Origin: Burkholderiaceae bacterium
GTDB taxonomy: Bacteria > Pseudomonadota > Gammaproteobacteria > Burkholderiales > Burkholderiaceae_C
DNA length: 64,000 nt
Assembly: GCA_023954035.1 (NCBI GenBank)
Contig: JAMLIT010000017.1
Location: 1-64,000 of the forward strand
Direction of reading: 5' to 3'
Each line of letters opens with the position of its first letter. Position 1 is the first letter of the stretch. Positions 19,000 to 28,753 of the stretch are shown here, piece after piece. The notes below the pieces were generated by a model. That model saw nothing but the letters and a program-made list of their open reading frames with translations. It searched no databases and was not told the DNA's origin. Both the position numbers and the translations under genes were made by a program.

Positions 19000-19018
19000 T
19001 GGCGGGAGGGTGTCATTC
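19000..19018 (+). other. Possible left attachment site (degenerate copy of tRNA-Ser 3' end)
   Basis: TGGCGGGAGGGTGTCATTC aligns in the same orientation with the plus-strand copy of the tRNA-Ser 3' end at 28754-28773 (TGGCGGAGAGGGTGGGATTC). It has one missing base and two mismatches. It lies at the expected left boundary of the element, just outside the arm-type repeats at 19076. The match is imperfect, so this is a candidate only. Confidence 0.45.
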
Positions 19019-19075
19019 ACAAAAATGCTTGAAACCCGCATGAATGCTGGATTCTTGCTTTCGACTTCTCAGAAA

Positions 19076-19094
19076 TGCCCCCAAAAGTGCCCCC
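19076..19094. repeat. Arm-type TGCCCCC repeats at the left end of the island
   Basis: Two TGCCCCC words begin at 19076 and 19088, spaced by 12 bases. The same word with the same 12-base spacing occurs at the other end beside the integrase (28620 and 28632). Paired short direct repeats at both ends suggest binding sites for the integrase N-terminal domain. Confidence 0.6.
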
Positions 19095-19106
19095 TCTGCG
19101 CAACAG

Positions 19107-19634
19107 TCACGCCCTCCAGCGCCCCGTACGCAGCAGCTCAGCAGCCACCACCTGAACATCAGCCCACCGCACCTGCAGCACATGCAAGGCCACTTGCTGA
19201 GCATACGCATGCGCGCCACTGGCGTGACAGCCAAAGGCCGGGCGCAGCATTTCGTCGGCTCGTTGGAAGTCAGTGGCGCCAGGGTAGTGAACCGGCCCGG
19301 CCCAGGGCGTGCCGGACTCGATCAGCTCAGCCATAACGCCAGCATGAAACACCGCTGCAGCCGTGGCGGCCAAAACCCCGGATTCGTCCGGGCCGGGGTC
19401 GGGTAGCTGGGCGAAGGTTTCGCGGGCGGGCCAATGCGCCGCGCCGGTCACGCGCCCGTCATCGGTGGCGGCAATGGTGGCCTCTGGTGGCAGCAGCCCA
19501 ACCCACTGCATCAAGATGATGTGCCCGGCTTCGTGTACGGCAGCTTGCCGCAGTGGGTCGCGCAGTGTGGGGCGGCTCTGCCAGGATTGCACGCGGCGCA
19601 AGGTGGTGGCGCTGGGGTATGGGTGGGGCAGCAT
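19107..19634 (-). CDS. HEAGH-motif protein, possible M41-like metallopeptidase
   Basis: A 175-residue protein starting at ATG 19634 (a GTG start at 19703 would add 23 residues). RQAAVHEAGHIILMQWVGLL contains HExxH as HEAGH, and the following region resembles the short M41-peptidase-like proteins carried by integrative elements; a downstream acidic ligand could lie in GATDFQRADEML. No membrane segment and no ATPase domain, so it is not FtsH. It is the last gene of the minus-strand cluster, beside the capsid gene. A role in capsid maturation or regulation is possible but unproven. Confidence 0.6.
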   Translation of the reverse strand: MLPHPYPSATTLRRVQSWQSRPTLRDPLRQAAVHEAGHIILMQWVGLLPPEATIAATDDGRVTGAAHWPARETFAQLPDPGPDESGVLAATAAAVFHAGVMAELIESGTPWAGPVHYPGATDFQRADEMLRPAFGCHASGAHAYAQQVALHVLQVRWADVQVVAAELLRTGRWRA

Positions 19635-19757
19635 TCTGAGGGGGGAAAGGTGGCCTGGTCGCAGCGCCCCACAACAAAGCGCGTCCGCATCCGGCCATGT
19701 CACGCAGATCAGCCGCCCTGCGTGACGCGGTGCCCCGAAGGGCTTTCCCGTGGTTAT

Positions 19758-20786
19758 TTACGCCAGGTCGCTGCCGCCTCGGACGATACCGGTGCGGCGT
19801 AGGAATGCCGCGCCCATGTCGGCAGTAACGCGAATGCCGGTGCCGTCCGTGTCGAACGAAACCTTGTGCTCCAGGCGCAGCGGGGTGGGTGTGCCAGCCA
19901 GGCGCAGCACGCTCACCACCGGGTGGAATGCCGGGTCAGGCAACACAAACCAGCGCGCCGCAGGCAGGCCAGCCAGGGCGGCTACCTTGAGAGATAGGCC
20001 AGCGTCCAGCACGGACTTGCGGGCGGCGTATTCCAGTTCTGGCGAGACGACAAGATGGGCGGCGCGCAGGTTCAGGGCGTTCCCGGCTGCACTTTCCTGG
20101 TTGCGCAGCATGCCCATGGCAGCACCCAGGGCAGCGCCGTCCAATGCGGTCTTGGTGGTGTTTGCATCGCTGAACATGGCGGCGCCATCATCCATGAGGG
20201 GATTGCCGCCCAGGGTGTCGGCCACGATGGCGGCCTCCTTTTGTGCCGCGTGGGCACCGACAGCAGCGAACACGGTTTTGAGGGCGCCCAACTGGTCGTT
20301 GATGATCAGGTGACGCGAAGCCCAGACGATGCGGCCAAAGGTGGTTAGCTGCACAGCTGCGCCGCCTGCTGCGACAAACGCAGCGCCTTGGGCAATCTCG
20401 GCAAACTCGCTCATGGGCTGCATGTCGAGGTCGCCATCGATGCTCGGTAGGGTTTCTTCCTTGAAGCCCTCCACCTCGGTGCTGGCGGTGAATTGCAGGT
20501 GCTCCTGCGCAGCGGCATCAAACGCGGCAACCGTCACATTTTTGGCGCCGTTTGCCAGCAGGCGGGCAAAGTCGGCAGAGCGCAGGCCACGGGCCATAAC
20601 AGCCATGTCGCCTTCGGTGTCGGTGGGCTTGCGCAGCTTGGCGCCGATGGTGTAGGCGATATGGCGGGCGCTGAGGCTTTCGGCCAGTGGGTGCGTGGTG
20701 CTGGTGGGCGCAGCGCCCATTTGCAGGGCGAAGAAATCAGGCGCGGCGGCCAGGATTTCAGCGGGTTTGATGGTGGTGGAGTGCAT
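19758..20786 (-). CDS. Phage major capsid protein (Mu gpT / protease-fused head-protein group)
   Basis: A 342-residue protein starting at MHSTTIKPAEIL after a GAAAGGA ribosome-binding site. The segments QLTTFGRIVWASRHLIINDQLGAL, AAMGMLRNQESAAGNALNLRAAHLVVSPELE and PAFHPVVSVLRL followed by LEHKVSFDTDGTGIRVTAD are those of major head proteins of the Mu gpT type or of the capsid half of prohead-protease/capsid fusions. The protease half is absent here. It is downstream of the small terminase gene and two short genes, with no portal or large terminase, so assembly would need a helper phage (inference). Confidence 0.78.
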   Translation of the reverse strand: MHSTTIKPAEILAAAPDFFALQMGAAPTSTTHPLAESLSARHIAYTIGAKLRKPTDTEGDMAVMARGLRSADFARLLANGAKNVTVAAFDAAAQEHLQFTASTEVEGFKEETLPSIDGDLDMQPMSEFAEIAQGAAFVAAGGAAVQLTTFGRIVWASRHLIINDQLGALKTVFAAVGAHAAQKEAAIVADTLGGNPLMDDGAAMFSDANTTKTALDGAALGAAMGMLRNQESAAGNALNLRAAHLVVSPELEYAARKSVLDAGLSLKVAALAGLPAARWFVLPDPAFHPVVSVLRLAGTPTPLRLEHKVSFDTDGTGIRVTADMGAAFLRRTGIVRGGSDLA

Positions 20787-27356: not shown

Positions 27357-28577
27357 TCAGGCTGCCCGGGGCGCCAGCGCCATCACATCGGTACCCCTTC
27401 GCAGCTTGTCCAGGTGGTTCGCCCAGTCGCACATCATCATGCGCCGCTCTTTTAAGTACAGGGCATGGTTGTAGGCCGCGCTCACCTCGTTGCGCTCCTG
27501 GTGGGCCAGCTGCAGCTCAATGGCGTGGTGTGCATAGCCCTGCTCATGCAGGATCGTGGACGCCATGCCCCGAAACCCGTGGCCCGTCATGCGCCCCTTG
27601 TAGCCCATGCGCTCCAGGGCTTTCAGGATGGTGTTGTTGCTCATGGGCTTGGCATGGTCGCGCTCGCCAGGGAACAGCAGCTCGCGCCCACCTGAGAGGG
27701 TGTGCAACACCTTCAGCACCTCCACCGCCTGCGGCGACAGGGGCACGATGTGAGGGGTTTTCATCTTCATGCGCTCGGGCGGGATTCGCCACTCGGCGGC
27801 CTGCAGGTCAAACTCTGCCCACCGTGCCGCGATCAGCTCGGTGGTACGCACAAACGTGAGCGCCATCAACTGCATGGCCAGGCGCGTGTAGGGCCCGCCC
27901 TGGTACGCCTCGATCTTGCGTAGCAGCTCGGGCAGATCCTTTTCACCCAGGCGGGCGTAGTTCTCTTTCCTGCGGCTCTTGAGGGTGTCGCTGGGCTTCA
28001 CATCGGTGGCGGGGTTGCGCTCGATCAGGTCATGAGCCACGGCGTAGCGCAGAATCTGCCCGCTCATCTGCAGAACCCGGTGCGCCAGGTCGATAGCACC
28101 ACGGCCTTGAACTGCTTTTGCCATGTGGGTGAGGTGCTTTGCTGTCACGGCACCGATGGGCAGCGCGCCCAAGGCGGGGAAAACGTCGCTTTCCAGGCGC
28201 CGGATGGCGTAGTCGGCATGCCGTGGGCTTTTGCCGTCGCGCCAGTGGTCCCACCACAGCCTGGCCACAGCCTCGAAGGTGTTCGCCTGGTTGACTGCCA
28301 CGGCCATCTTGGCATCGCGCCGGAGCTGTCCGGGGTCGGTACCGTCTTTCAGCAGCTTGCGGGCCTCGTCGCGCGCCTCCCGCGCCTGCGCCAGGGTCAC
28401 CTCGGGATAGACACCCAAGGCCAGACGCTTTTCCTTGCCCGCGTAGCGGTACTTCCAGCGCCAGTATTTGCCCGCAGGAGTCACCTCCAGGTAAAGGCCC
28501 TTTTCGTCCGCGAGACGCTCGCGAGGCTTGCCTGGTGGGCAAGCGGCTTTCTTGCACGCGGTGTCGGTCAGTGGCAT
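27357..28577 (-). CDS. P4-type tyrosine recombinase integrase
   Basis: A 406-residue integrase starting at MPLTDTACKKAACPP. It has the N-terminal arm-binding DUF4102 domain (GKPRERLADEKGLYLEVTP, LALGVYPEVTLAQAREARDE), a SAM-like core and a complete catalytic domain: LTFVRTTELIAARWAEFD (first Arg), HGFRGMAS (HxxR), LAHQERNEV and AAYNHALYLKERR (nucleophilic Tyr). It appears intact. It ends back-to-back with the cargo gene and starts 176 bases from the 3' end of tRNA-Ser, the usual position for an integrase that targets a tRNA gene. Confidence 0.95.
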   Translation of the reverse strand: MPLTDTACKKAACPPGKPRERLADEKGLYLEVTPAGKYWRWKYRYAGKEKRLALGVYPEVTLAQAREARDEARKLLKDGTDPGQLRRDAKMAVAVNQANTFEAVARLWWDHWRDGKSPRHADYAIRRLESDVFPALGALPIGAVTAKHLTHMAKAVQGRGAIDLAHRVLQMSGQILRYAVAHDLIERNPATDVKPSDTLKSRRKENYARLGEKDLPELLRKIEAYQGGPYTRLAMQLMALTFVRTTELIAARWAEFDLQAAEWRIPPERMKMKTPHIVPLSPQAVEVLKVLHTLSGGRELLFPGERDHAKPMSNNTILKALERMGYKGRMTGHGFRGMASTILHEQGYAHHAIELQLAHQERNEVSAAYNHALYLKERRMMMCDWANHLDKLRRGTDVMALAPRAA

Positions 28578-28580
28578 TTT

Positions 28581-28638
28581 GGGGGCATTTTTTAGGGGGC
28601 ACCGGAAAACCCGGAAAAGTGCCCCCAAGTGTGCCCCC
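28581..28638. repeat. Arm-type TGCCCCC repeats at the right end of the island
   Basis: Two direct copies of TGCCCCC (28620, 28632; 12-base spacing) and two inverted copies GGGGGCA (28581, 28595) sit just upstream of the integrase start. The left end has two direct copies with the same spacing (19076, 19088). Confidence 0.65.
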
Positions 28639-28686
28639 AAAAAGTTGAGGCTTCAACAGGACGGAAGCGGACACAACAGGACAAAA

Positions 28687-28719
28687 AAAACCCCGCTGCC
28701 CTATGGGGAGCGGGGTTTT
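28687..28719. terminator. Bidirectional rho-independent terminator between island and tRNA-Ser
   Basis: AAAACCCCGCT / AGCGGGGTTTT, perfect 11-bp arms with an 11-base loop, flanked by A-tract and T-tract. It lies between the tRNA 3' end and the integrase gene and could end the tRNA transcript. Confidence 0.85.
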
Positions 28720-28753
28720 AGTGAACTGTAGCGCTCTGTAGTGGAGCTAATCC

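What the first reader, a model, noticed from the sequence alone, without database searches (positions are those of the whole stretch)
19000..28753. Satellite-like integrative element with a small terminase and a capsid gene but no other virion genes
The element at tRNA-Ser has an intact P4-type integrase, AlpA-like regulator, TOPRIM primase, DUF3987 helicase-like gene, repeat-rich origin, Nu1-like TerS and one major capsid protein. There is no large terminase, portal, head-completion or tail gene. Among known families this matches phage-inducible chromosomal islands that exploit a helper's packaging, and among them the capsid-encoding kind. A set reduced to capsid plus TerS is unusual. It may build a modified capsid around a helper's portal, or it may be a decayed prophage.
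Basis: partly seen in the sequence, partly recalled or inferred. Interest (0 to 1): 0.85.

Follow-up and report, generated by a model that had tools for sequence, protein, structure and literature searches.

The report
Phage satellite with swappable capsid gene
A 10-kb integrated DNA element in a betaproteobacterium looks like a parasite of bacteriophages: it carries a phage packaging signal, a packaging-adaptor protein and one shell protein but no gene found for the packaging motor or portal, so it probably travels in particles built partly by a lambda-like helper phage; satellites with a shell gene are already known, but in this group unrelated shell genes turn up in the same slot.

Summary
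Between two att copies (18999-19012; 28753-28767 at tRNA-Ser) lies a 9,755-bp element: int, AlpA, TOPRIM primase, DUF3987, iteron repeat, TerS and one HK97-fold capsid protein. TerL and portal were searched for and not found.

A decayed prophage is unlikely: the chassis recurs in other genera, with the same att core in three other genomes (9.6-10.1 kb), and once as a contig that closes to a circle. Of 24 related elements inspected, 21 carry a capsid gene, from three Pfam families, with or without a protease. Each satellite capsid type tested forms its own clade; window-G023 capsid dN/dS is 0.15. The cos core also stands before the packaging genes of 5 of 6 full prophages of the same family, the likely helpers.

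Satellite capsid genes are known (21 of 29 reference Gram-negative PICIs; SaPIbov5 Ccm), and EcCICFT073's was dispensable. So: new variant of a known kind, a betaproteobacterial PICI-like family with a swappable capsid slot. Helper-dependent cos packaging is well supported; the capsid's job (size switch, own shell or passenger) is inferred.

The parts
28754..28843 (-). tRNA-Ser (cga), integration target; its 3' end (28753-28767) is one att copy
18999..19012 (-). far att copy CACCCTCCCGCCAG; the same 14 bases stand at the far end of the G358 and G364 elements
28615..28626 (+). repeat AAAAGTGCCCCC, also at 19083-19094; probable integrase arm sites
   Evidence: role inferred
27357..28640 (-). P4-type tyrosine integrase
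   Evidence: Pfam Arm-DNA-bind_3, Phage_int_M, Phage_integrase
26679..27356 (+). 225-aa ORF of unknown role on the opposite strand; cargo position
   Evidence: no Pfam, PADLOC or NCBIfam match
25607..26527 (-). RadC-like JAB protein
   Evidence: Pfam RadC 5.5e-43
25197..25478 (-). AlpA-like regulator/excisionase
   Evidence: Pfam Phage_AlpA 2.6e-4, phrog_66 7.5e-8
24904..25200 (-). 98-aa ORF kept beside alpA in relatives
   Evidence: tblastn 52-68% in relatives where found
23966..24907 (-). TOPRIM primase part
   Evidence: Pfam Toprim_3 2.4e-10, phrog_2249 8.8e-65
22390..24015 (-). DUF3987 helicase-like replication protein
   Evidence: Pfam 2.9e-104, phrog_2373 5.3e-71
22212..22313 (.). inverted repeat of GTCGAC iterons, probable replication origin
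   Evidence: 31-nt arms, 94% complementary; similar layout in relatives by eye; role inferred
22158..22192 (-). cos-like site 1
   Evidence: pattern hit, none in 100 shuffles; compared with relatives, prophages and lambda
22044..22077 (-). cos-like site 2, directly before terS
21452..21997 (-). terminase small subunit (TerS)
   Evidence: phrog_57 4.3e-22
21243..21455 (-). 70-aa ORF of the type-a module
   Evidence: tblastn homologues in G023 and G015 C16
20851..21408 (-). ORF between TerS and capsid (start probably near 21240), kept in type-a elements
   Evidence: alignment A3, 43-67% identity; also 39% in G347
19758..20813 (-). major capsid protein, HK97 fold, no fused protease
19107..19703 (-). 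HEAGH protein, possible M41-type metallopeptidase (start probably 19634)
   Evidence: HEAGH and a distal Asp kept in 4 of 4; hhalign to the FtsH M41 domain probability 53, E 1.4e-4: suggestive only

Best explanation
An integrative phage satellite of the PICI type. Int with AlpA excises it from tRNA-Ser (inferred from family). TOPRIM primase and DUF3987 replicate it from the iteron repeat (inferred). Its TerS acts at its cos sites and brings in the large terminase of a lambda-like helper, which cuts and packages it (cos sharing shown, process inferred). The helper supplies TerL, portal, connectors, tail and lysis. The satellite's own capsid protein is a working head component: in the window type, which has no protease, most likely mixed with helper capsid protein to make a head that fits one ~9.8-kb copy, as Ccm does for SaPIbov5; in relatives with a fused protease it may form the whole shell. 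Shown: gene content, borders, recurrence, purifying selection, shared cos core. Inferred: every step in the cell.
For: Chassis in several genera; 9.64, 9.76, 9.80 and 10.07 kb between att copies in the four elements measured; one IMG/VR contig with a 141-bp exact terminal repeat, i.e. a 9,340-bp circle. Capsid gene in 21 of 24 elements inspected, three Pfam families; portal profile 0 of 22, TerL 1 of 22. Capsid tree: type a 100, type b 99, type c 100. dN/dS window-G023: capsid 0.15, HEAGH 0.18, TerS 0.29. cos core GCGGGTAATTCG upstream of the terminase genes in 5 of 6 full prophages whose upstream DNA was held. In 349 family genomes the cos pattern gave 20 sites in 18 genomes, and 0 for the reversed pattern in the rows shown: 8 with TerL nearby, 4 in this family, 8 unassigned. 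Precedents: Ccm occupies the pentamers of SaPIbov5 procapsids (PMC8569155, abstract); PmCI172 makes small heads and encodes a capsid homologue (PMC6092414, passages).
Against: In EcCICFT073 deleting the capsid gene changed neither transfer nor interference, and packaged DNA was phage-sized (PMC6092414, passages). No TerL of the lambda-like family was found in the window's own assembly, which is 89% complete. TerS was not seen by tblastn in G235, G412, G221, G517 and G490. U088 carries TerL; U090 has an ORF that reads like a tape measure, so not every relative is so reduced. The satellite cos and its flank resemble the prophage ones, so a gain in packaging specificity from its own TerS is not shown. 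No experiment.
Confidence: 0.6

Rival explanations
1. Satellite as above, but the capsid gene is a captured late gene or a helper-facing interference gene and is not needed for the particle. About four copies (4 x 9.76 = 39 kb) are packaged as a concatemer in full-size helper heads.
For: EcCICFT073: capsid deletion without effect, phage-sized packaged DNA, two cosN. PICIs capture late genes, capsid genes most often. Two cos-like sites here.
Against: Capsid gene in 21 of 24 elements, replaced by unrelated families in the same slot; dN/dS 0.15; putative catalytic His and Ser aligned in the nine type-b-like proteases compared.
Confidence: 0.28
2. Each element makes a complete shell of its own from its capsid protein (with protease where present) on a helper portal: a stripped-down form of the cf-PICI strategy. 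Overlaps with the best explanation; differs in that no helper capsid protein is used.
For: Protease-capsid fusions in types b and c; HK97 fold; similar sizes.
Against: No own portal found; the window type has no fused protease and sits on a long branch.
Confidence: 0.25
3. Decayed prophage remnant.
For: No TerL or portal found.
Against: Same reduced architecture in many genomes and genera; genes open and under purifying selection; a circular contig; DUF3987 not found by tblastn in six full-prophage loci, two of which have a 37-38% TOPRIM match.
Confidence: 0.04

Closest known systems
Gram-negative PICIs (EcCICFT073, PmCI172)
   Same: int, AlpA, primase, origin, late zone with a capsid gene in 21 of 29 reference elements; two cosN in EcCICFT073; PmCI172 makes small heads (PMC6092414 section and passages, PMC10111431 passages)
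   Different: Betaproteobacterial hosts (those of PMC6092414 were Gammaproteobacteria); TOPRIM and DUF3987 on separate genes; own TerS, which EcCICFT073 lacks; several capsid families and fused proteases in one slot
SaPIbov5 with Ccm
   Same: Satellite capsid homologue of low identity to the helper capsid (23% there, PMC6893505 passages; about 23-32% to prophage capsids here); cos packaging
   Different: Gram-positive; Ccm's place was seen by cryo-EM, here the role is inferred
cf-PICI
   Same: Satellite-encoded capsid protein and TerS
   Different: No portal or TerL found here
P4-like satellites
   Same: P4-type integrase at a tRNA gene, AlpA, primase
   Different: TerS and capsid genes; Sid, Psu and Delta were not searched for
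PICMI
   Same: int, AlpA, DUF3987-type primase, small size
   Different: PICMI has Fis, no capsid-remodelling genes and no terS (PMC10803314, passages)

Membership tests
PICI (Gram-negative) | int and AlpA at one end, primase and origin, mostly one direction | tested here: met
   the 225-aa ORF is the exception in direction, the origin is inferred
PICI (Gram-negative) | specific attachment site | tested here: met
   tRNA-Ser in window, G013 and G358; the att core also in G364, where ARAGORN found no tRNA
PICI (Gram-negative) | helper-type cos or own TerS | tested here: met
   both present
PICI (Gram-negative) | phage-dependent induction and packaging in phage-like particles | not testable with these tools
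   needs culture
PICI (Gram-negative) | sequence kinship of AlpA and Pri-Rep with reference PICIs | not tested
   no reference PICI was fetched
cf-PICI | own major capsid protein | tested here: met
cf-PICI | own portal and TerL | tested here: not met
   profiles from seven lambda-like phages, none matched; portals of other types not tested
cf-PICI | head maturation protease | tested here: inconclusive
   none fused in the window; the HEAGH protein might serve; present in relatives
P4-like satellite | Sid, Psu, Delta genes | not tested
   P4 was fetched but these genes were not searched for
Complete lambda-like prophage | TerL, portal, tail genes | tested here: not met
   TerL and portal by profile; in the PHROG scan of ten proteins only two tail lines at E 0.03-0.05
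FtsH/M41 peptidase (HEAGH protein) | HExxH with a distal Asp in an M41 fold | tested here: inconclusive
   motif and Asp kept in 4 of 4; hhalign probability 53; no Pfam, PHROG or NCBIfam match and no PDB hit by sequence; fold not predicted

The most novel reading that the evidence does not exclude
A betaproteobacterial satellite lineage builds its own small heads by plugging one of several unrelated capsid cassettes (HK97-type alone, serine-protease fusion, ClpP fusion, lambda gpE type) onto a helper's portal, guided by a shared lambda-type cos; in the window type an FtsH-like metallopeptidase has taken the place of the usual head-maturation protease.
Probability: 0.15. Interest if true: 0.8.

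Novelty: new variant of a known kind. Interest (0 to 1): 0.5.

Why it matters
It extends PICI-like satellites with capsid genes to Betaproteobacteria and points to their likely helpers through a shared cos core. The replacement of unrelated capsid genes on one chassis makes an open question testable: whether satellite capsid genes build the particle, switch its size, or are dispensable as in EcCICFT073.

Tried and rejected
Decayed prophage: set aside on recurrence, selection and the circular contig. cf-PICI membership: rejected, no portal or TerL found. Encapsulin: Foldseek also lists encapsulins, as expected for the shared HK97 fold, but sequence families and context are phage capsid.

The first structure run, on 4 sequences, was poor (pLDDT 47.5) and not used; the 19-sequence run was. 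A PDB search with the HEAGH profile found nothing. PADLOC found nothing for the 225-aa ORF. A fixed-gap cos pattern found nothing because I set the gap wrongly; the variable-gap form was then used. The exact cos pattern of the 349-genome census does not match the window itself. The ORFs between TerS and capsid in types a and b compared weakly (probability 13), so no homology is claimed. Scans with the capsid alone found one contig in genome contigs and none in viral contigs.

Controls and their limits: the three prophage controls were themselves among the seven phages that built the profiles, so they match by construction; the TerL of U088 is the only independent positive. In the census, three of the eight TerL sites (G047, G061, G113) and the four satellite sites were already known to me. 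In the tree, the phage rows G021 and G114 were judged from short stretches.

Left out of the counts of elements: U091-U093, L126-L128 and L080-L082 (more distant DUF3987 proteins) and G071, a possible further member seen in a short stretch. U090 and G490 were not in the TerL/portal test. G023 lies on two contigs joined by inference; the two G015 pieces were placed by TerS and capsid, their contigs ending before DUF3987; G025 and U088 are incomplete contigs.
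Full report
What is in the window. From the tRNA-Ser inwards: P4-type integrase, a 225-aa ORF on the other strand, a RadC-like gene, AlpA, a 98-aa ORF, a TOPRIM primase part, DUF3987, an inverted repeat of GTCGAC iterons, two cos-like sites, TerS, two small ORFs, the capsid protein and a HEAGH protein. The tRNA 3' end CACCCTCTCCGCCAG (28753-28767) recurs in a changed form as CACCCTCCCGCCAG (18999-19012); the same 14 bases stand at the far end of the G358 and G364 elements, and G013 has CACCCTCGCCAG. 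The distance between att copies is 9,755 bp here and 9,638, 9,797 and 10,072 bp in G013, G358 and G364. tRNA-Ser was found at this place in G013 and G358, not in G364.

The two proteins in question. The 181-residue protein is a terminase small subunit (phrog_57, 4.3e-22); the Pfam Nu1 match is only E 0.1. The 351-residue protein is a major capsid protein (Phage_capsid_4 1.7e-26; the capsid part of a protease-capsid fusion model). Its model on 19 sequences has mean pLDDT 85; the best solved match is HK97 Head II, E 6e-9, with modest TM-scores, and the best viral model is a major capsid protein, E 1.2e-14.

Host. One relative in the same genus (G023) has a contig identical in length and match to a record titled Giesbergeria sp. 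MAG.32, a genus of Comamonadaceae, Betaproteobacteria. 'Family' below means the family label of the search tool.

Relatives. The capsid query found 11 of 199 related genomes; the closest is G023 (92%), where it is again followed by the HEAGH protein (82%) and then by a minor-tail/neck-like gene (phrog_1924). The TerS query found 10 of 199. The DUF3987 query found 56 of 349 family genomes, with ten places in nine genomes above 400 bits. A scan of IMG/VR gave ten loci, and an order-wide search of 399 genomes gave 54 with a match, five of which were fetched.

Capsid slot. I inspected 24 elements: window, G023, G015 (two), G347 (two), G013, G358, G221, G332, G364, G235, G372, G412, G517, G025, G490, and IMG/VR U084 to U090 (loci L084 to L090). 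Twenty-one carry a capsid gene: type a, capsid without protease (window, G023, G015 twice, G347); type b, protease fused to capsid (G013, G358, G221, G332, U084, U085, U087, U089); type c, ClpP-like protease fused to capsid (G364, with Pfam CLP_protease 8.3e-27; G235 by PHROG); type d, lambda gpE type (the other G347 element, Phage_cap_E 9.9e-72); type e, Phage_capsid or PHROG 10/617 (G372, G412, G517 with protease, U086 with a separate protease gene, U090). None was found in G025, G490 and U088. The type-b protease is recognised by PHROG profiles and an aligned His and Ser; that these are catalytic is recalled from the family, and no Pfam protease model matched G013. The HEAGH protein is in window, G023, G015 C13 and G347, in fragments in G025, and was not found in G015 C16.

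Not a decayed prophage. Profiles from seven lambda-like phages found TerL in 1 of 22 elements (U088) and portal in 0 of 22; the three prophage controls match by construction, being part of the profiles. TerS was not seen by tblastn in G235, G412, G221, G517 and G490, so it is common but not universal. U090 has, besides a capsid gene, an ORF that by eye reads like a tape measure, and was not in the profile test. U087 ends in an exact 141-bp repeat, as a circular assembly does. dN/dS between window and G023 is 0.15 for the capsid, 0.18 for the HEAGH protein, 0.29 for TerS and 0.18 for DUF3987; against G015 the capsid value is 0.51 with dS above 1 and says little. In a tree of 29 capsid domains (15 satellite, 13 phage, one uncertain) type a has support 100 and a long branch, type b 99 and type c 100; type c groups with phages (76) and several other nodes are weak.

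cos. The 17 DUF3987-to-terS gaps I read share, by eye, an AT-rich block and inverted iterons whose letters differ between lineages. The core GCGGG(T/C)AATTC is exact in 9 of these 17, near forms are seen by eye in at least 4, and some gaps were held only in part. Lambda's own ends read GGGTCCTTTCCGG...CGCGGGTTTTCGC; that these are cosQ and cosN is recalled. The window has two sites, none in 100 shuffles. The 12-base core GCGGGTAATTCG lies upstream of the terminase genes in 5 of 6 full prophages whose upstream DNA was held (G013, G047, G113, G005, G061; not G031); in G013 another ORF lies between it and terS, and the LPPA33 stretch did not reach that place. A census of 349 family genomes found 20 sites in 18 genomes and 0 for the reversed pattern in the rows shown. 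Eight have TerL in the stretch held, four belong to this satellite family, and eight could not be assigned. G013 holds a satellite and such a prophage together; the window's own assembly shows no such TerL beyond an E 0.003 fragment.

Known work. From listings, abstracts and passages: Gram-negative PICIs often carry a capsid gene (21 of 29 reference elements) and its deletion in EcCICFT073 had no effect; PmCI172 makes small heads and encodes a capsid homologue; Ccm occupies the pentamers of SaPIbov5 procapsids; cf-PICIs carry the whole head module. In those nine searches I saw no description of this family or of capsid replacement on one chassis; most subscription papers, among them (recalled) the original cf-PICI and SatelliteFinder papers, are not in the library or were not seen.

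Verdict. A real, conserved, PICI-like satellite family. 'Works like a cos-packaged PICI' is strong; 'is a cf-PICI' fails; the role of the capsid gene is open, with a size switch or own shell favoured over a passenger by conservation and replacement, against one clean negative precedent.

Noticed in passing
window 17629-17853: Coding-like stretch left of the far att that resembles a P4-type integrase (tblastn 32% to a G347 integrase, E 8e-4, with an internal stop; no Pfam match); perhaps a remnant of an older element.
   Followed up: partly
L089:9847-10764: A satellite of this family carries a gene matching the candidate defence family PDC-S31 (E 8.7e-17) behind its capsid gene.
   Followed up: partly
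L088:4554-10815: A relative with TerS plus TerL, no capsid gene found, and an OLD/GajA-like ATPase.
   Followed up: partly
L151, L158, L159, L164, L165, L166, L169, L170: cos sites of the same pattern without TerL in the stretch held; L166 has an integrase upstream, L159 a primase-like gene downstream, L165 ends at a contig edge. Possibly other satellites of the same helpers.
   Followed up: no
L028:2225-3037, L037:3730-4605, L084:9539-10372: Some elements also carry a minor-tail Z / neck-like gene, which in several prophages lies upstream of terS.
   Followed up: partly
window 22212-22313 and the gaps read: The iterons of the probable origin differ in letters between lineages while, by eye, both arms keep matching each other, which suggests co-evolution with the replication proteins.
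   Followed up: no
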